From a virus, in IMG/VR virus record IMGVR_UViG_3300021475_000056, positions 1 through 23,625 of that record: DNA of 23,625 bases; one strand, given 5' to 3'. This document shows, one piece after another, positions 2,855-12,837 of the stretch. The notes beneath the pieces were generated by a model that was not told where the DNA came from, made no database searches, and was given only the letters and a program-made list of their open reading frames with translations. Made by a program: the position numbers and the translations under genes. Position 1 is the stretch's first letter. Every line of letters starts with the position of its first letter.

Positions 2855-3370
2855 ATGTGCTGCTTGACGTGTAGTTATTTCCAAGCGATCGAGCCGCCCG
2901 AGCACAAGGCGGCGCGCGAGGCCGGAAGGTGTGAGGGCAGCTGCGGCAAGGAATGGAATTGGCGCACCGCCATTCTGTACGTGCGGAATCACAAGGAGCC
3001 GCTGAAGGGTTTCTGCCGGTTCAATCCTCTCGCTGTGGAAACATCGCCGTGGGGCGCTTGCGGGCAACACCGGCCGGTGCTGGGCAAGGATAATGGGTGG
3101 GGCATCCGCGCTTTTGATGGTGAGCGCGATTGCGGCTTGATGGAATGGGCAATCAAGGGGTATCGCGACTTGATGCGGGGCGACTCTGGCGATTGGAGTA
3201 GCAGACGGCTCAACTATCTCGAAGAGATGAACGGCCAACTTCGCCAGCAATTGGCCGCCGCGCGCAAGCGTTCTGCGAGCCGTTTGGCGAGATTGCAGAA
3301 GAACAAGAAGCCGAGACCAGAGCCCAAGCTGCCGGAGCCCAGCATGTTGAGGTTGGTGGCGGCGGAATAA
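2855..3370 (+). CDS. Cys-rich protein with basic coiled-coil tail
   Basis: A 171-residue protein from ATG 2855, which follows AAGGAG. Cys at 2, 3, 6, 26, 30, 54, 69 and 93 suggest one or two metal sites in residues 1-95, starting with MCCLTC. Residues of about 117-150 form a charged helix (LNYLEEMNGQLRQQLAAARKR) likely to be a coiled coil, followed by a Lys/Pro-rich tail. It looks like a nucleic-acid- or protein-binding adaptor, but I do not recognise it. It follows the other Cys-rich gene by only 18 nt. Confidence 0.65.
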   Translation: MCCLTCSYFQAIEPPEHKAAREAGRCEGSCGKEWNWRTAILYVRNHKEPLKGFCRFNPLAVETSPWGACGQHRPVLGKDNGWGIRAFDGERDCGLMEWAIKGYRDLMRGDSGDWSSRRLNYLEEMNGQLRQQLAAARKRSASRLARLQKNKKPRPEPKLPEPSMLRLVAAE

Positions 3371-8097: not shown

Positions 8098-8390
8098 CAG
8101 AGATGAGATGCGATACGTGCACCTATTGGGTGCGTTCTTATCTGCAGCGGCGCCAGCAAGGAACCTGTCACCATAGATCGCCAATGGCGATGCCCAACGC
8201 TGTGCGGCAATCAAGCGAAGCCGCTGCGTTGTTGCTGTGGTGGCTCGTCAGGGAAATTGCCGATGAGGAAACCGCAAATAGGGAAGAGGCAAACTATAGC
8301 ATCGATCCTGAAATGGATGAGCCGTTCGAAGCCCACTGGCCTATAACGCTGAACGAAGATTGGTGCGGCGACTGGAAGGAAAAACAGTGA
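8094..8390 (+). CDS. small zinc-ribbon-like protein
   Basis: A 98-residue protein starting at GTG 8094 within the first copy of the repeated start cassette, overlapping the terminase stop. The N-terminus MRCDTCTYWVRS, then GTCHHRSP, gives Cys 6, Cys 9, Cys 25 and His 26/27, a plausible single zinc knuckle. The middle contains a hydrophobic helix (AAALLLWWLV, about residues 44-53) that is too short for a clear membrane span. The C-terminal third is acidic, with WCGDW near the end. Function unknown. Confidence 0.65.
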   Translation: MTEMRCDTCTYWVRSYLQRRQQGTCHHRSPMAMPNAVRQSSEAAALLLWWLVREIADEETANREEANYSIDPEMDEPFEAHWPITLNEDWCGDWKEKQ

Positions 8391-8425
8391 GTCGAGGCTA
8401 ACAAGTCGATGCGGAGGATCAGCGC

Positions 8426-8509
8426 GTGAAGGACGAGTGGAAGGTGGAATTGAAAATAGAAATAGCGCTCCTGCTGATCCTGCTGGCTTGCTTCGTTCTG
8501 CTGCGATGA
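8426..8509 (+). CDS. 27-residue single-span membrane peptide
   Basis: A 27-codon gene with its own copy of the GGAGGATCAGCGC start cassette. It starts at GTG 8426, has a charged N-terminus (KDEWKVELK) and then a purely hydrophobic helix IEIALLLILLACFVLL ending in one Arg. The hydrophobic segment of about 16 residues can just cross a membrane. The strong, duplicated translation signal is the main reason to believe it is expressed. Possible roles are a small membrane effector, an exclusion peptide or a toxin-like peptide; none can be chosen. Confidence 0.6.
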   Translation: MKDEWKVELKIEIALLLILLACFVLLR

Positions 8510-8522
8510 GGAGGATCAGCGC

Positions 8523-8777
8523 ATGAAGAAAGACGATGACACCGGCCTTGTTTGCATGCGCGTCGCCGATATGCCGATCCCCTCTGCCGCGTCCGTAATC
8601 GGCCGCTGCGACGAATGCGACGAACGCATCTGGATCGCGCATACGAGCCCCAGGACGGACAAGCGCTTCTGCGTCGCGTGCGCGAAGGCCATGTATGGCA
8701 AGCCGAAAATGGAGGTCACCAAGCGCTCATTGGCCGAGGCCGTGGACTACCTGCGGCGCAAGGGACAGATCGTATGA
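8523..8777 (+). CDS. small zinc-ribbon protein
   Basis: An 84-residue protein from ATG 8523 with the third copy of the start cassette. Cys 29-x-x-Cys 32 (RCDEC) and Cys 50-x-x-Cys 53 (FCVAC) form a classical four-Cys zinc ribbon spaced by 17 residues. The C-terminus is helical (KRSLAEAVDYLRRKGQIV). Such small ribbons in phages often bind DNA, RNA or host proteins; the target is unknown. It is coupled to the next gene by an ATGA overlap. Confidence 0.7.
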   Translation: MKKDDDTGLVCMRVADMPIPSAASVIGRCDECDERIWIAHTSPRTDKRFCVACAKAMYGKPKMEVTKRSLAEAVDYLRRKGQIV

Positions 8778-8980
8778 TGGGACATCGGGAGCGGCTCAGC
8801 GGCGGCGATGAATGGGATGCGTTCAGCCGGCGCGCCAAGCGTTATCTCCACTGGCGCCCCGGTGAGCGCGCCCGTATCAAGCGCAAGTTCAACAAGAGGC
8901 AGCGCAAGGAGAATGCGCATGACGATCGGCGAGACGAGAGTGCGGCTCACCTTCAATCCGGAAAGTCACTCGGCGGTTGA
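8774..8980 (+). CDS. small basic conserved phage protein
   Basis: A 68-residue, very basic protein from the ATGA junction at 8774. The pattern G-G-D-E-W-D-A-F-S-R-R-A-K-R-Y, then H-W-R-P-G-E-R-A-R-I-K-R-K-F-N-K-R is a small protein type common in alphaproteobacterial phages and usually unannotated. The last 20 or so residues overlap the next gene (start 8919) in a different frame and look less conserved in character, so ancestral versions may have ended near residue 48. Probably nucleic-acid binding, by charge only. Confidence 0.7.
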   Translation: MMGHRERLSGGDEWDAFSRRAKRYLHWRPGERARIKRKFNKRQRKENAHDDRRDESAAHLQSGKSLGG

Positions 8981-9116
8981 CATCATCAAGCGGAGGACGG
9001 CCGACCTGATCGACTTCTGCGAGGCGAACAAGGACAAGGACCCGCGGCTGGCCGAGCTGGCGATGACGGCCTACGAGGAAGCCGCCATGTGGGCCGTGAA
9101 GCTTGCTACGGCCTGA
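8919..9116 (+). CDS. Acb2/Tad1-type hairpin protein (anti-defence candidate)
   Basis: A 65-residue helical protein. ATG 8919 is chosen because AAGGAG ends 7 nt before it; ATG 8913 in the same frame is too close. It has R-V-R-L-T-F-N-P at residues 7-14, then a helix with DIIKRRTADLIDF, a short charged turn, and a second helix LAMTAYEEAAMWAVKLAT (48-64). The small helical hairpin ending in E-x-A-M-W-A-V-K matches what I know of the Acb2/Tad1 hairpin domain, whose characterised members bind cyclic nucleotides or glycocyclic ADP-ribose and block CBASS or Thoeris signalling. The family call is from pattern recognition; ligand and activity are inference. Confidence 0.7.
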   Translation: MTIGETRVRLTFNPESHSAVDIIKRRTADLIDFCEANKDKDPRLAELAMTAYEEAAMWAVKLATA

Positions 9117-9129
9117 TGGGGGTGATCGT

Positions 9130-9348
9130 ATGATCACGAGAACCATCAAGGACCTCGAGATCGAGCGCAGCTGCATCCGCGAGCGCATGCTTCGGAGAGA
9201 AACCGACATCGTCCTGACTCGCATGAAGCGCTACGTGACCGAGTATTTCGGCCCGCGCTGCGAGGAGTTCGATGCGGGCTGCGCCTGCTGCGGGGCGTGG
9301 AAGCATTACGACGCGTTTGAGAAATACGTTCGCGGTGTGTGGTCCTGA
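9130..9348 (+). CDS. small Cys-containing phage protein
   Basis: A 72-residue protein starting at ATG 9130, where GGGGGTGA serves as a modest ribosome-binding site. The N-terminal half is a charged helix (IKDLEIERSCIRERMLRRE). The second half has Cys 44, 51, 53 and 54 (RCEEFDAGCACCGAWKHYDAFEKYV), possibly a metal knuckle. It is the last gene before the promoter region of the A/T-richer insert. Function unknown. Confidence 0.65.
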   Translation: MITRTIKDLEIERSCIRERMLRRETDIVLTRMKRYVTEYFGPRCEEFDAGCACCGAWKHYDAFEKYVRGVWS

Positions 9349-9385
9349 CCAATGCCCGCTATGTGATTGAGTTGACTCGTAAACC

Positions 9386-9409
9386 ACATTTTGTGACATA
9401 ACATTTTGT
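9386..9409. repeat. direct repeat ACATTTTGT x2
   Basis: ACATTTTGT occurs at 9386-9394 and 9401-9409 with a 15-bp period. The second copy lies inside TAACATTTTGTTA, an inverted repeat with 5-bp arms and a 3-nt centre. The repeats sit 20-40 bp upstream of a promoter and a ribbon-helix-helix gene, and ribbon-helix-helix repressors typically bind short tandem sites, so these are candidate operators. Confidence 0.5.
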
Positions 9410-9427
9410 TATCGTTGAAGGTTTTCG

Positions 9428-9462
9428 TTGACGTTCTTGCTATGTCCTCATAGCATCTGCGG
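9428..9462 (+). promoter_or_regulatory. sigma70-type promoter, probable leaderless start
   Basis: TTGACG (9428-9433), a 17-bp spacer and TAGCAT (9451-9456) match five of six and four of six consensus bases. Transcription would begin about 7 nt after the -10 box, which is at or next to ATG 9463. The ribbon-helix-helix gene would therefore be read from a leaderless mRNA. No Shine-Dalgarno precedes that ATG, which agrees. Confidence 0.55.
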
Positions 9463-9645
9463 ATGCCAGCACCAGCCGGAAGCGATCACCTGAAGAGCGC
9501 GGGACGCACCAAGCAGATCGTTCTGCGCGGACATGTGACGTTGATCGAAAAGGTCGACGCTTGGCGCGCTGCGCAAGAAGACGAGCCCTCACAGGCGGAA
9601 GCTATCCGCCGACTGGTGAAGCTGGGACTGCAGACCGATCAATAA
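9463..9645 (+). CDS. ribbon-helix-helix transcription regulator
   Basis: A 60-residue Arc/CopG-type protein. The DNA-contacting strand is about residues 16-23 (TKQIVLRG), helix A about 26-39 (TLIEKVDAWRAAQED) and helix B about 44-56 (QAEAIRRLVKLGL), the classical order and spacing for a dimeric repressor. It is preceded by a promoter that appears to start at its ATG and by a direct repeat likely to be its operator. It heads the A/T-richer block with the DUF3102-like, GHKL ATPase and zinc-ribbon genes, so it probably controls them as well as itself. Confidence 0.85.
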   Translation: MPAPAGSDHLKSAGRTKQIVLRGHVTLIEKVDAWRAAQEDEPSQAEAIRRLVKLGLQTDQ

Positions 9646-9660
9646 ACAGTGTGAACTGCA

Positions 9661-10254
9661 ATGGGCATGGCGATCAAGGTGACGAAATTGCCAAACACCC
9701 GCTCCCGCGCCGATTGGGCCGCGCTGATCAGCTGCGCGTGGCGCGAGCAGCTGCCGAGCATCTTCGAAACCGGAAACCTGCTGGAGGCGGCAAAGGCCGA
9801 ATTGCTACACGGCGAATGGGAGCTGATGTTCAAAAATAATGAGGCGCCATTTTCAAAGCGAATGGGTAACATGCTAATTAAAATAGCTGACGACGAAAGG
9901 CTCCGAAATGGGAAACATGCTTCCCATTTGCCGGTGCACTGGTCCATCCTCCATGAACTAACCAAACTCACCGCCGCTCAGTTCGAGAACGGCATCGCGT
10001 CAGGCGCCATAAACCCAAATATGCAGCGCAAGGACGTGCGAAAATTACGTGGGATAGAACCGAAGTCTGTTAAAAAAAAAGCAGCAGCCAGCGCGGCTCC
10101 TCAGTCGGAATCAAAAAATCTAGTGGAATGGATCAGGACAATAGGTCCTCAGATAGAATTCGCCTACCGGGAACTACCAGAGGAAGATAAGGGCGCGCTA
10201 CTCGCTGGCTTGATGCAGACATTCGCCATTTTGGAGCCGTCGTATGCAGAATAA
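9661..10254 (+). CDS. DUF3102-like phage/plasmid protein
   Basis: A 197-residue protein starting at ATG 9661, 15 nt after the regulator gene and without a clear Shine-Dalgarno. Residues of about 35-100 (GNLLEAAKAELLHGEWELMF, then FSKRMGNMLIKIADDERL) resemble the L-x-E-A-K-x-x-L-x-H-G-x-W...S.R.A..... pattern of DUF3102 and related replication or partition proteins. A Lys/Ala linker near residues 130-150 includes an A9 run (10072-10080). The C-terminus is helical. Codon use (ATA, AAA, TTA, AAT) differs from the head genes and suggests recent acquisition. It overlaps the GHKL ATPase gene by 11 nt, so the two proteins probably work together. Confidence 0.6.
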   Translation: MGMAIKVTKLPNTRSRADWAALISCAWREQLPSIFETGNLLEAAKAELLHGEWELMFKNNEAPFSKRMGNMLIKIADDERLRNGKHASHLPVHWSILHELTKLTAAQFENGIASGAINPNMQRKDVRKLRGIEPKSVKKKAAASAAPQSESKNLVEWIRTIGPQIEFAYRELPEEDKGALLAGLMQTFAILEPSYAE

Positions 10255-11644
10255 TTACGATGAGGAGGGCGTTCCGAGCACTCATCTAATTGACGCTATC
10301 CGCGCGGAGCCGTCTGAGTTCTGGCAGTGGGCCGGGGAAGCGATAGACAATTCATTCGATGCAAGCGCGACAAAGGTCGCGCTGATCATGAATGCCGGTG
10401 AGTTGACTTGTTGGGATAATGGCGAGGGGATCACTAAGGATCGGGACCATGCGCTCACGCGTCTTTCCGTGCACGGAGCTATGGTGGGCACGAAGCTGGG
10501 CCGCTATGGGGTCGGCATCAAATCCAAGGCAATTCAACACGGGCAGTGCATAAAATTCGAAAGCGTATCAATAGACGGAAAGATGGTCCGCTTTTGGGAC
10601 TGGAGCACAGTCCGCACCTCGGGTCGGTGGCTTTTCCCGAAGCCCAACAGATTCCCAGCTCATGGCAAGTCGACCTACACCCGTGTGCAGATATTGGAGC
10701 TTTTCCGTAAACCAAAAGAACGAGATATTGTAAAAACAGCCAACATAATACAGCGGCTGTATTACCCCGCTATGCTGTATGGCCGCACTGTGACGCTAAA
10801 CGGCGCCGATATTCAACCCATACCATTGCCAGCCATGACCGACGTAGTCGAGGGCGAGATCGATCTAGGAGAAGGAAATAAAGCCAGCGTTATCGCCGGC
10901 ATGCTGGTCGACCACAAATCAAAATTGAAGCAGGTCGATGTCTCCTATGCGTGGCGCCTCATCAAAAAGGAGAGCGCTTTCGCTTGCGACGGATATGCCG
11001 GCATATCCGCTATGTATTGTCGGGTCAGCCTCGAAGGCGGCTGGCACTTGGCCAAGTTCAAGGACGAGCTGTTCGACAAAAACGAATACGATCAGCTGGA
11101 GGATGCGGTCGCGGAAATAATCGCTCCGGTGCTGGAGAAGTGTCACTCTGCGTCCCTCAAGCTCAGGACGAACCGCATCGTGCAATTGCTGAACGACATG
11201 ATCCCGGACCATATGAAGATTTCGCGGCCCGTAAAAAAGGACCCCCAGGGCAGACAGGGTCCCAAGGGCGGTGATAAGCGCGTGAAGCCTGCGCCAGATA
11301 CAGACCCAACTCCGACAGGGCCGACCAGCGGGAGAAAACCCCCGCGTGGTCTCTTGATCGAATTTTCCGATGGTCTGCATGAGACCGAGGGATTTGGCAG
11401 AGCGCTGATCGAGAAAAAGTCAGCACGAATACAGCTGGCGAGCGACAATCCTCACATCGCCAAGCTGCGCGCGGGCCGCGATGAGGAACTGTGCGTCATC
11501 GCCCTCTATGACATCGCCATGCTTTTGTACGAGGGTCAAAATTCGGAGCAGCTGCTCTTCGATCTCGGAGACAGAGACCATCTCGGGCTGCGCGCATGGA
11601 AAAAGGTGGCTGATCATTATCAACAGGCGGAGGCAGCCGAATAG
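10244..11644 (+). CDS. GHKL-type ATPase (Hsp90/MutL/MORC-like)
   Basis: A 466-residue protein with a complete Bergerat ATP-binding fold near its N-terminus: N-box E-A-I-D-N-S-F-D-A (residues 32-40), G1 box DNGEGI (58-63) and G2 box GRYGVGIKSKAI (87-98), followed by a T-x-V-x-I strand near 146-150. The order and spacing fit Hsp90, MutL and MORC proteins rather than sensor kinases, since no His-phosphotransfer domain or membrane segment is present. Residues of about 190-325 form a transducer-like middle, 328-367 is a basic Pro/Gly/Thr linker and 368-466 a separate C-terminal domain. Related stand-alone ATPases occur in several defence and DNA-handling systems. ATG 10244 follows TTTTGGAG and overlaps the upstream gene. 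Substrate and partners are unknown. Confidence 0.85.
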   Translation: MQNNYDEEGVPSTHLIDAIRAEPSEFWQWAGEAIDNSFDASATKVALIMNAGELTCWDNGEGITKDRDHALTRLSVHGAMVGTKLGRYGVGIKSKAIQHGQCIKFESVSIDGKMVRFWDWSTVRTSGRWLFPKPNRFPAHGKSTYTRVQILELFRKPKERDIVKTANIIQRLYYPAMLYGRTVTLNGADIQPIPLPAMTDVVEGEIDLGEGNKASVIAGMLVDHKSKLKQVDVSYAWRLIKKESAFACDGYAGISAMYCRVSLEGGWHLAKFKDELFDKNEYDQLEDAVAEIIAPVLEKCHSASLKLRTNRIVQLLNDMIPDHMKISRPVKKDPQGRQGPKGGDKRVKPAPDTDPTPTGPTSGRKPPRGLLIEFSDGLHETEGFGRALIEKKSARIQLASDNPHIAKLRAGRDEELCVIALYDIAMLLYEGQNSEQLLFDLGDRDHLGLRAWKKVADHYQQAEAAE

Positions 11645-11656
11645 TTAGGGGCCACT

Positions 11657-12484
11657 ATGAATGAGAAGCTGTTCAGGCCCACAAACGTCATCATCGACCA
11701 CAAGCCGCTGCGGGCCTTTGAGATCAAGTGTGGGAAGTGCGGAACAACGCAAACAGAGCGTATGAACACCTTCAAAGGCGCCAAGTCGGGCGCAAGCGAC
11801 CAACGGGAATTTCAGGCGGTTGCGCTCAAGTTCCACCGCGCTGGATGGCAGGTAGGATTGATCCCATCACAACACAGATGCTTCGTTTGTAGGCCCCCTG
11901 CCAAGCCGCTCTCCAATGCCGATCTACGGCAGACGGCTGCCGTAATAAATCTCCCGACGCAAGCTCATATGGGGCGAGAGCAAATGCCGACGCAACAATC
12001 AACCGCTAATGGCGCCAACGCGGTTCTCAACCTTGGCCCAAAATTGGCTGATCGCGACACAAAGCGCTTGATCATCATTACACTGCAAGAATGCTACGAT
12101 GAAAAAAATGGCTGCTACTGCGCTGGGCACACTGACAAGGTGGTGGCGCAGCGCCTTAATTGCCCGCAAGCGTGGGTCGCCGATATACGCGACGAAATTT
12201 TCGGTGATGCCGGCAGTAATCCAGAGCTGGATGGCGCGCTCACGGAAGCCAAGGATCTCGCTGCCGAAGTGCAGCGAGAAGTGGACAAAATGCGCAAGCA
12301 GATAGCTCAACAGACCAACGAAATTAAGGAGTGGCTCAACAAGATGAACGTGACACTCGACCGAATCGATCCAGAGAGCTGGGCCGGAGACCTGTATTTG
12401 AAGATAGACACCCTGCTGAGCCGAACACAGGATAACGAGAAACGGTTGATCGATATTCAAAGGGTTGTTCGCCCGGGGTCGTGA
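11657..12484 (+). CDS. zinc-ribbon, HTH-like and coiled-coil protein
   Basis: A 275-residue protein 12 nt after the GHKL ATPase gene, with TTAGGGG as ribosome-binding site. Order: a four-Cys zinc ribbon made by CGKC (25/28) and CFVC (75/78); a polar linker (80-130); a helical unit (136-185) with Cys 146, 153, 155 and 169 and an HTH-like HTDKVVAQRLNCPQAWVADI; a coiled coil (about 195-235, LAAEVQREVDKMRKQIAQQT); and a final helical stretch. This is a typical recognition-adaptor layout, and its position suggests it supplies nucleic-acid or partner binding to the ATPase. I do not recognise the family, and related Zn/HTH phage proteins also exist without the ATPase. Confidence 0.6.
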   Translation: MNEKLFRPTNVIIDHKPLRAFEIKCGKCGTTQTERMNTFKGAKSGASDQREFQAVALKFHRAGWQVGLIPSQHRCFVCRPPAKPLSNADLRQTAAVINLPTQAHMGREQMPTQQSTANGANAVLNLGPKLADRDTKRLIIITLQECYDEKNGCYCAGHTDKVVAQRLNCPQAWVADIRDEIFGDAGSNPELDGALTEAKDLAAEVQREVDKMRKQIAQQTNEIKEWLNKMNVTLDRIDPESWAGDLYLKIDTLLSRTQDNEKRLIDIQRVVRPGS

Positions 12485-12503
12485 AAATGAGAAGGTGGCC
12501 GCC

Positions 12504-12659
12504 ATGAGTAGGACGAGATCCTCAACAGCCAGTGTCGAGGCCGAGCGGCTGAAGGTGCTGATCATTCAAGTGTGCAAGCGCCTGATGAAATACGAACCCG
12601 ACGTGCAGGAAGTTCTCCAGGAACTTCTCGACCGGGAGAGGGACCATGATCACGCGTGA
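12504..12659 (+). CDS. small helical protein
   Basis: A 51-residue protein from ATG 12504 with AGAAGGTGG upstream. It is almost entirely helical (EAERLKVLIIQVCKRLMKY, then DVQEVLQELLDRERDHD) and could be a short coiled coil. It is 19 nt after the zinc-ribbon gene and overlaps the next gene by 14 nt. Composition returns towards the GC-rich type of the head genes. Function unknown. Confidence 0.55.
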   Translation: MSRTRSSTASVEAERLKVLIIQVCKRLMKYEPDVQEVLQELLDRERDHDHA

Positions 12660-12837
12660 ACTTATGGGGCACATCGAGTGGCTGAAACGAGGCTTGCTAT
12701 TTATTGCTGCCGGTAAAGCATCTGATCCGGCTGCATTGGCCCGACAAGTTCTCGCTGGGCACGTGTGGGCATCTGAATGGGAGGATGTTCCATCCATCAA
12801 AGTGGCGCGGCAAAGTGGGCCACCCGATCCCCACTGA
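12646..12837 (+). CDS. small protein of unknown function
   Basis: A 63-residue frame from ATG 12646 with GGGAGAGGG upstream, a good ribosome-binding site that lies in the end of the previous gene. The N-terminal 40 residues are helical and protein-like (HIEWLKRGLLFIAAGKA), while the last 17 codons overlap the next gene in another frame and look unstructured. It could be real or an accidental frame; the ribosome-binding site and the coupling favour real. Confidence 0.5.
   Translation: MITRELMGHIEWLKRGLLFIAAGKASDPAALARQVLAGHVWASEWEDVPSIKVARQSGPPDPH

What the first reader, a model, noticed from the sequence alone, without database searches (positions are those of the whole stretch)
9350..12484. 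A/T-richer cargo cassette with a GHKL ATPase between terminase and portal
Seen: a promoter, a ribbon-helix-helix regulator and three tightly spaced genes (DUF3102-like, GHKL ATPase with intact N, G1 and G2 boxes, and a zinc-ribbon/HTH-like/coiled-coil protein). Their base and codon use is visibly more A/T-rich than that of the flanking head genes. Known: GHKL ATPases of the MutL/MORC/Hsp90 type act as ATP-driven clamps and recur in several DNA-handling and defence systems. Inference: this is a mobile, self-regulated system, possibly anti-phage or superinfection-related, with the ATPase as effector or motor and its neighbours as adaptors. The arrangement is not one I know as a described system.
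Basis: partly seen in the sequence, partly recalled or inferred. Interest (0 to 1): 0.78.

Follow-up and report, generated by a model that had tools for sequence, protein, structure and literature searches.

The report
Phage cargo cassette with clamp-like ATPase
An uncultivated phage carries, between its DNA-packaging and portal genes, an inserted set of optional genes built around an ATP-driven clamp-like protein; a mycobacterial phage carries a distant relative of that protein as an insertion too, which suggests a rarely seen phage module, perhaps for overcoming host defences, although its function is untested.

Summary
RHH-like, DUF3102-like, GHKL and zinc-ribbon-like genes lie at 9463-12484 and are AT-richer than 25 other ORFs (GC3 0.63 against 0.80), though other stretches of the same contig are as AT-rich. 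They sit inside a larger insertion, about 8098-12785: of 38 relatives that keep both flanking genes, 37 have at most 1.07 kb there. The exception, the closest relative, holds a different operon in opposite orientation, with a homologous RHH-like gene, a shared 17-nt upstream element and g9130.
The three genes are not a recurrent trio: among 14 phage records only the window's phage carries more than one. But the ATPase's nearest relative found, Bobby gp96 (26% identity), lies in a 3.5-kb insertion (1 of 50 related records) beside Cys-rich and ParB/HTH-like proteins. The ATPase is of the MORC/MutL kind, is not MzaB or Shedu, and is no specific relative of T4 rIIA. An Acb2-like gene shares the insertion.
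Best reading: an accessory module, an ATP-gated clamp with DNA-binding adaptors, most likely counter-defence. Insertion and exchange are shown; function is inferred.

The parts
8098..12785 (+). Insertion (cargo region) between TerL and the gene that starts at about 12785 (g12704), relative to other phages of the group
   Evidence: 37 of 38 relatives with both flanks have a gap of at most 1067 nt here; the window's phage (L014) 4691 nt, L015 4811 nt
8523..8777 (+). small ORF, 84 aa, Cys-rich by eye, within the insertion, ordinary composition
   Evidence: no match in the other portal-relative loci at E 1e-3 (weak test for a short ORF)
8919..9116 (+). Acb2/Tad1-hairpin protein, 65 aa (putative cyclic-nucleotide sponge)
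   Evidence: Pfam PF24729 E 2.1e-9, 37.9 bits, cut-off 27; matches in 152 phage records
9130..9348 (+). g9130, also present at this site in L015
   Evidence: 44% over residues 25-67 in L015
9396..9412 (+). AT-rich 17-nt element upstream of the RHH-like gene, shared with L015 (15 of 17); possible operator
   Evidence: 0 of 300 shuffles reach 15 of 17; positions
9428..9456 (+). sigma-70-like promoter match TTGACG-17-TAGCAT (not above chance in the region)
9463..9645 (+). RHH-like small regulator, 60 aa
   Evidence: 59% identical to L015 8766-8975 minus strand; weak PHROG repressor match
9661..10254 (+). Protein B, DUF3102-like; DNA-binding adaptor by inference
   Evidence: DeadP gp51 E 2e-16
10244..11644 (+). 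Protein C, MORC/MutL-type GHKL ATPase, with a less certain S5-like second domain, a low-confidence linker and a small C-terminal alpha/beta region that resembles the same region of three phage relatives
10337..10354 (+). N box EAIDNS with the predicted catalytic Glu (E32)
10415..10429 (+). G1 box DNGEG
10496..10516 (+). G2 box LGRYGVG
11657..12484 (+). Protein D: N-terminal Cys-containing (zinc-ribbon-like) domain, helical HTH-like middle, long C-terminal helices
   Evidence: phrog_21667 E 5.5e-28, phrog_12127 E 9e-16; model mean pLDDT 63, pTM 0.29
12504..12837 (+). two short overlapping ORFs (12504-12659, 12646-12837), AT-richer, may belong to the cassette
   Evidence: no match in relatives at E 1e-3 (weak test for short ORFs)

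Best explanation
An accessory operon was inserted, as part of a 4.7-kb exchangeable cargo region, between the large-terminase gene and the next gene of a phage's packaging and head region. It encodes an RHH-like regulator and three proteins: a DUF3102-like and a zinc-ribbon/HTH/coiled-coil-like protein, both probably DNA-binding, and a MORC/MutL-type GHKL ATPase. Shown here: the insertion, a different operon at the same site in the closest relative, the intact GHKL boxes, the GHKL fold of residues about 10-200 (the following domain is modelled with low confidence), and the insertion that carries the nearest relative in phage Bobby. Inferred: the ATPase dimerises on ATP and closes round DNA or a DNA-bound complex, recruited by its two neighbours, during infection; its use is most likely counter-defence (blocking or remodelling a host defence complex on phage DNA), under repression by the RHH-like protein at an upstream operator.
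For: Insertion: (37 of 38 relatives without it). Exchange with RHH-like gene, g9130 and upstream element in common. Composition. ATPase class. Nearest relative Bobby gp96 (26% over 393 aa; grouped with C at 96/95) lies in an insertion of 3487 nt, placed to within 14 nt, between flanks 96-97% identical to Redno2; of 50 records sharing the surrounding DNA one, Bobby, covers 80% or more of the stretch and gp96 matches no other phage record. Beside gp96 lie an HTH and ParB-like protein and two proteins that are Cys-rich by eye. Counter-defence: the same insertion holds an Acb2-like gene; L015's operon at the site holds a Dam-type methyltransferase; 30 of 36 bacterial loci fetched with the ATPase hold a Z1-type gene, as in MZA-like loci; no tyrosine integrase or serine recombinase was found in the 46.9-kb contig, which mildly disfavours a prophage-expressed exclusion role.
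Against: The trio occurs once only, so the partnership of B, C and D rests on one operon. No match of B, C or D to a known counter-defence family. The Acb2-like and Dam genes are neighbours in the site, not partners. The promoter match is at chance level. A D relative (L100) lies beside what look like early or replication genes by eye, which fits a DNA-metabolism role as well. The bacterial ATPase scan was biased, since alignment A2 included one MZA-like sequence. Bobby's insert has no neighbour of C in common with the window and no GC drop, and the branches of C and gp96 are very long.
Confidence: 0.4

Rival explanations
1. The cassette is an anti-phage (superinfection-exclusion) module: the ATPase is a sensor or effector directed against competing phages, with the RHH-like gene keeping it in check.
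For: Bacterial relatives of the ATPase occur in MZA-like loci, and MORC/paraMORC ATPases are placed mainly in restriction-modification loci (PMC2292703, passages); one viral-contig relative lies next to a DruA-domain protein; phages can carry defence cargo (PMC9122126, listing and start of abstract).
Against: No nuclease, helicase or toxin domain found in B, C or D; no PADLOC match but a partial MzaB hit, E 3e-4; no integrase found in the contig; Bobby's copy lies in the rightward gene run that starts next to the divergent immunity repressor, a position that I read as lytic.
Confidence: 0.22
2. The cassette serves the phage's own DNA metabolism or gene expression: an ATP-driven clamp that organises, segregates or protects phage DNA, with B and D as loaders.
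For: B and D relatives sit in early-region or replication-like surroundings in several phages (partly by eye); Bobby's ATPase sits next to an HTH and ParB-like protein; MORC2 structures with DNA are among the fold matches.
Against: Presence in one phage of the group and in one of 50 Bobby-like records shows that it is dispensable to these phages at large.
Confidence: 0.2
3. No system: B, C and D are independent accessory genes that happen to lie in one operon of a gene-acquisition site.
For: Each has relatives only singly in the 14 records searched; the site holds different genes in L015; D matches 29 phage records, 23 of Caulobacter and 4 of Rhizobium phages, none of which matches C.
Against: Tight spacing and overlap in one AT-rich block with similar codon use; the ATPase's nearest relative also lies among DNA-binding-type proteins in one insertion.
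Confidence: 0.18

Closest known systems
Mycobacterium phage Bobby gp93-gp97 (gp96 ATPase)
   Same: Nearest relative of the ATPase found (26% over 393 aa; grouped at 96/95), carried as an insertion absent from siblings, with DNA-binding-type and Cys-rich neighbours
   Different: Neighbours are of other families (HTH/ParB-like gp95; gp93, gp94 and gp97 without Pfam match); no DUF3102-like or D-like match in the record; no drop in GC
MzaB of MZA systems and paraMORC ATPases of restriction-modification-type loci (PMC2292703, passages seen)
   Same: GHKL ATPase; most bacterial loci fetched with C are of this type
   Different: No Z1, PD-(D/E)XK or AIPR match among the cassette proteins and neighbours scanned; Glu rather than the consensus Asp in the N box; NCBIfam MzaB 15.2 bits against a cut-off of 850; grouped with gp96 rather than with Z1-linked rows, which themselves do not form one clean group
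T4 rIIA and its orthologues (GHKL proteins called poorly understood counter-defence systems in PMC7824862, passage seen)
   Same: Phage-borne GHKL ATPase with a suspected role in conflict; rIIA-named models appear among viral fold matches
   Different: No sequence kinship with T4 rIIA beyond the superfamily (E 0.067 and 0.045 with our profiles); 466 against 725 residues; no rIIB-named match among the neighbours
VcSduA-type Shedu (GHKL plus DUF4263 nuclease; PMC12137116, passages seen)
   Same: GHKL ATPase domain in a phage-conflict protein
   Different: C has no DUF4263 or other nuclease match
Phage hot spots of exchangeable antiviral genes (PMC9122126, listing and start of abstract only)
   Same: Variable genes at one site between conserved phage genes
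   Different: Other phage group, other site, cargo function unknown

Membership tests
Accessory cargo inserted at a variable site | Absent at the same site in most relatives | tested here: met
   37 of 38 relatives with both flanks lack it; 8 of 47 loci could not be scored, and several loci are near-copies of each other
Accessory cargo inserted at a variable site | Different cargo at the same site in a close relative | tested here: met
   L015, portal 87%, holds an RHH-like gene plus five other ORFs on the opposite strand
MORC/MutL-type GHKL ATPase | Intact N, G1 and G2 boxes | tested here: met
MORC/MutL-type GHKL ATPase | GHKL fold | tested here: met
   SMCHD1 6mw7 Z 15.6 over 190 residues, rmsd 3.0; MORC2 5ofb Z 15.6 over 257 residues, rmsd 5.3; Hsp90-type chains follow at 14-15, so the subfamily is not told
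MORC/MutL-type GHKL ATPase | S5-like second domain | tested here: inconclusive
   Residues 222-307 have pLDDT under 50
Prokaryotic MORC (strict sense, PMC2292703) | GhXhhpXXRhl motif in the S5 domain | tested here: not met
   Best candidate in C is QVDVSYAWRLI, found with a pattern that I loosened: the Gly and one hydrophobic position are missing
MZA system | MzaB equivalog score | tested here: not met
   15.2 bits against 850; PADLOC match only over residues 28-114, E 3e-4
MZA system | Z1, nuclease and AIPR neighbours | tested here: not met
   Pfam scan of 10 proteins of the cassette and its surroundings found none
rIIA family | Sequence kinship with T4 rIIA | tested here: not met
   E 0.067 / 0.045 against profiles A5 / A7; no BLAST match between C and rIIA
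Shedu (GHKL type) | DUF4263 nuclease domain | tested here: not met
   no such Pfam match in C
DUF3102 (protein B) | Pfam gathering score | tested here: not met
   19.9 bits against 24.4, E 9e-4; called DUF3102-like only
Acb2/Tad1 hairpin family (neighbour gene 8919-9116) | Pfam gathering score | tested here: met
   37.9 bits against 27
Acb2/Tad1 hairpin family (neighbour gene 8919-9116) | Binding of cyclic nucleotides | not testable with these tools
   needs a binding assay; the PDB sequence search showed no chain named Acb2 among the 60 listed of 65
Self-regulated operon | RHH-like protein binds an operator before its own gene | tested here: inconclusive
   A 17-nt element is shared with L015 upstream of both RHH-like genes, 15 of 17, 0 of 300 shuffles; binding untested

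The most novel reading that the evidence does not exclude
A mobile phage module in which a MORC-type clamp ATPase, freed from the helicase, nuclease and methyltransferase partners of its bacterial relatives, is combined with interchangeable phage DNA-binding adaptors (DUF3102-like plus zinc-ribbon/HTH-like here, HTH/ParB-like plus Cys-rich proteins in Bobby) and used as an ATP-driven counter-defence machine, possibly one that poisons the very MORC-bearing defence systems it resembles.
Probability: 0.22. Interest if true: 0.8.

Novelty: new variant of a known kind. Interest (0 to 1): 0.55.

Why it matters
Phage GHKL ATPases with a suspected role in conflict are discussed mainly as rIIA orthologues, called poorly understood in the paper seen (PMC7824862, passage). 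A distinct lineage that lies in optional cargo of two unrelated phages, without nuclease or helicase, gives a small testable module: Bobby's recorded host is the laboratory strain Mycobacterium smegmatis mc2 155, and its insertion has a natural empty counterpart in siblings with flanks 96-97% identical, so presence and absence can be compared directly. The terminase side of the portal also appears, in two phages of this group, as a cargo site that holds genes of anti-defence type.

Tried and rejected
Trio conserved in Microcystis phage Mae-JY30: its annotation ('molecular chaperone', 'ATP-binding protein', D homologue) looked like the same trio, but in BLAST neither protein matches C or B, and the ATP-binding protein looks RecD/helicase-like by eye; the record has no match to profiles of C or B. 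Rejected.

rIIA orthology: rejected by profile scores; for fairness, rIIA itself hits a bacterial MZA-like ATPase (L076) at 3e-5 in that small set. MzaB: rejected; of other relatives, the plasmid ATPase, L060, L061 and L096 do match PADLOC MzaB (E from 1e-73 to 5e-15) and Bobby gp96 does not. Universal core gene: rejected.

More relatives of C: scans of viral contigs with C alone, A2 and A10 gave its own phage and three weak matches, two of them near-copies; plasmids one MZA-like hit; phages only Bobby; 0 of 398 Pseudomonadota genomes at E 1e-6, a search in which even G004, where a weak relative had been found (L077), stayed silent, so it shows little. A Parcubacteria ATPase (L096) matches the A5 profile over most of its length and is another possible relative. 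Host: the portal protein matched 0 of 398 Pseudomonadota genomes at E 1e-20, without a positive control; D matches in Rhizobium, Sinorhizobium and Caulobacter phages only hint at an alphaproteobacterial host.

Fold of D: model of mean pLDDT 63, pTM 0.29; no PDB match at E 0.001 or below. Fold of C: mean pLDDT 60.5, poor over residues 222-307 and 326-368. Paper searches on GHKL/MORC, rIIA, hot spots and phage GHKL counter-defence showed no title describing this cassette; the lists were capped (15 of 53, 7 of 7, 10 of 87, 10 of 114) and I read passages of three papers only.


Full report
What is there. The window is a whole 23,625-base virus record; the same phage is also held as a 46,905-base contig, 99.99% identical over the 20.5 kb compared. 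The ATPase has intact N, G1 and G2 boxes and a clear HATPase_c_3 match. Protein B is DUF3102-like but under the Pfam cut-off; DeadP gp51 is a clear relative, E 2e-16. Protein D matches two phage families of unknown function.

Insertion. In relatives found through the portal protein (46 loci, plus Mwe-JY08) the terminase gene is followed by g12704 and then the portal gene, often with g13475 between. Of these 47 loci 39 show both terminase and g12704; leaving out L014, which is the same phage, 38 remain, of which 37 have a gap of at most 1067 nt and one, L015, has 4811 nt (median of the 38: 118.5); the window's phage has 4691 nt. B, C and D have no match at E 1e-3 in any of the 47 but L014. The loci are not all independent (several are near-copies or fragments), and 8 of 47 could not be scored.

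Exchange. L015 is the closest relative (portal 87%, terminase 84%). At the same site it has a homologue of window gene g2855 (which in the window lies before the terminase), g9130, and then an operon on the opposite strand: an RHH-like gene 59% identical to the window's, an unknown protein (phrog_2615), a Dam-type DNA methyltransferase (Pfam E 4e-17), and three further ORFs. The AT-rich stretches before the two RHH-like genes share a 17-nt element, ACATAACA[AT]TTTGT[TG]AT, 15 of 17 identical; 0 of 300 dinucleotide shuffles reach 15, the largest being 14. The regulator and perhaps its operator are common while the operon behind them differs.

Composition. GC3 is 0.634 for B, C and D together against 0.804 for 25 other ORFs. 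The neighbours in the insertion, g8523, the Acb2-like gene and g9130, have ordinary GC3 (0.81-0.86), so the AT-rich block starts after 9348 and runs to about 12837. This is not unique: two other stretches of the contig pieces examined are about as AT-rich, and three upstream ORFs have similar codon use.

The ATPase. A profile of C with three phage relatives matches MORC and MutL chains best, over the GHKL region. The model (mean pLDDT 60.5) aligns with MORC2 and SMCHD1 at Z 15.6, with Hsp90-type chains at 14-15. Of 36 bacterial relatives fetched, 30 have a match to the plasmid's Z1 protein and 25 to its DUF4420-type protein within the locus, as in MZA-like systems (counted by me from the table; some loci are cut by contig ends). 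The query alignment contained one such sequence, which favours this outcome. The consensus of these ATPases has Asp (DLIDNS) where C has Glu (EAIDNS). In a tree of 30 rows C groups with Bobby gp96 (96/95) and not with the Z1-linked rows; but both branches are very long (3.96 and 3.38), the root is a midpoint, and the Z1-linked rows need two changes rather than one, so the grouping should be held loosely. T4 rIIA is not a specific relative.

The second insertion. Bobby is the only match of C among 50,697 phage records at E 0.01, and gp96 itself finds only Bobby at E 1e-4. Of 50 records that share surrounding DNA (some listed twice under two accessions, the weakest sharing only a short piece), only Bobby covers 80% or more of the queried stretch. 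Against Redno2 the flanks are 96.4% and 96.9% identical and 3,487 nt (L008 4338-7824) are extra, between the esterase stop and the next gene; the two matches overlap by 14 nt in Redno2, so the ends are placed to within 14 nt. The insert holds gp93 and gp94 (Cys-rich by eye), gp95 (HTH and ParB-like matches), gp96 and gp97. So in two unrelated phages this ATPase type is optional cargo next to likely DNA-binding proteins, although of different families, and in Bobby without any clear drop in GC.

Co-occurrence. Profiles of C, B and D (each built in part from some of these records) were run on the same 14 phage records: matches in 4, 5 and 5 records; only the window's phage is in more than one list. 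The trio as such is therefore not shown to be a system.

Function. Inference only. The insertion also holds an Acb2/Tad1-hairpin gene (above Pfam's cut-off), and the closest relative's cargo a Dam methyltransferase; both are of kinds used against host defences (recalled; sponge literature seen as a listing with abstract starts). No tyrosine integrase or serine recombinase was found in the 46.9-kb contig, while two of six searched relatives of the group, some of them fragments, have an integrase. Bobby's insertion lies in the rightward gene run that starts beside the divergent immunity repressor, which I read as a lytic operon. Together these favour a module used during infection, most likely counter-defence. 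The jumbo-phage paper calls systems centred on rIIA orthologues, also GHKL ATPases, poorly understood counter-defence systems (PMC7824862, passage); Iyer and colleagues place MORC and paraMORC ATPases mainly in restriction-modification loci (PMC2292703, abstract and passages).

Verdict. A real combination that I did not see described, as far as capped listings of open-licence papers reach; a new variant of a known kind (phage accessory cargo with a MORC-type GHKL ATPase), of moderate interest, with insertion and exchange shown and the function open.

Noticed in passing
window 8919-9116: Acb2/Tad1-hairpin protein inside the same insertion, ordinary composition; matches in 152 phage records, 146 of them Flavobacterium phages; the 12 shown are annotated hypothetical.
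   Followed up: partly
L015 5058-8975: Alternative cargo operon at the same site, opposite strand, with RHH-like gene, Dam methyltransferase and a protein with two copies of the phrog_1081 domain.
   Followed up: partly
L060 5968-9408 (97-kb viral contig): GHKL ATPase followed by a DruA-domain protein (Pfam 1.5e-32); a further GHKL match lies just upstream in the same record.
   Followed up: partly
L104 533-1597: A protein-B relative continues into a second domain that looks like an MT-A70-type adenine methyltransferase (by eye, not searched).
   Followed up: no
L010 9232-11983 (Mwe-JY08): The only record of the phages collection matching the portal has about 2.7 kb of other sequence between g12704 and portal, including a 446-aa protein: perhaps a second variable site.
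   Followed up: no
L079 1910-3232, L080 2209-3519, L083 2259-3563: In three Micromonosporaceae loci a further GHKL ATPase gene lies near the MZA-like genes.
   Followed up: no
L108 2690-4407: RecE-like exonuclease gene (phrog_434) followed by a 279-aa ORF, in the same phage contig outside the window.
   Followed up: no
window 2855-3370 and L015 4260-4784: The same gene (64% identical) lies before the terminase in the window and just after it in L015.
   Followed up: no
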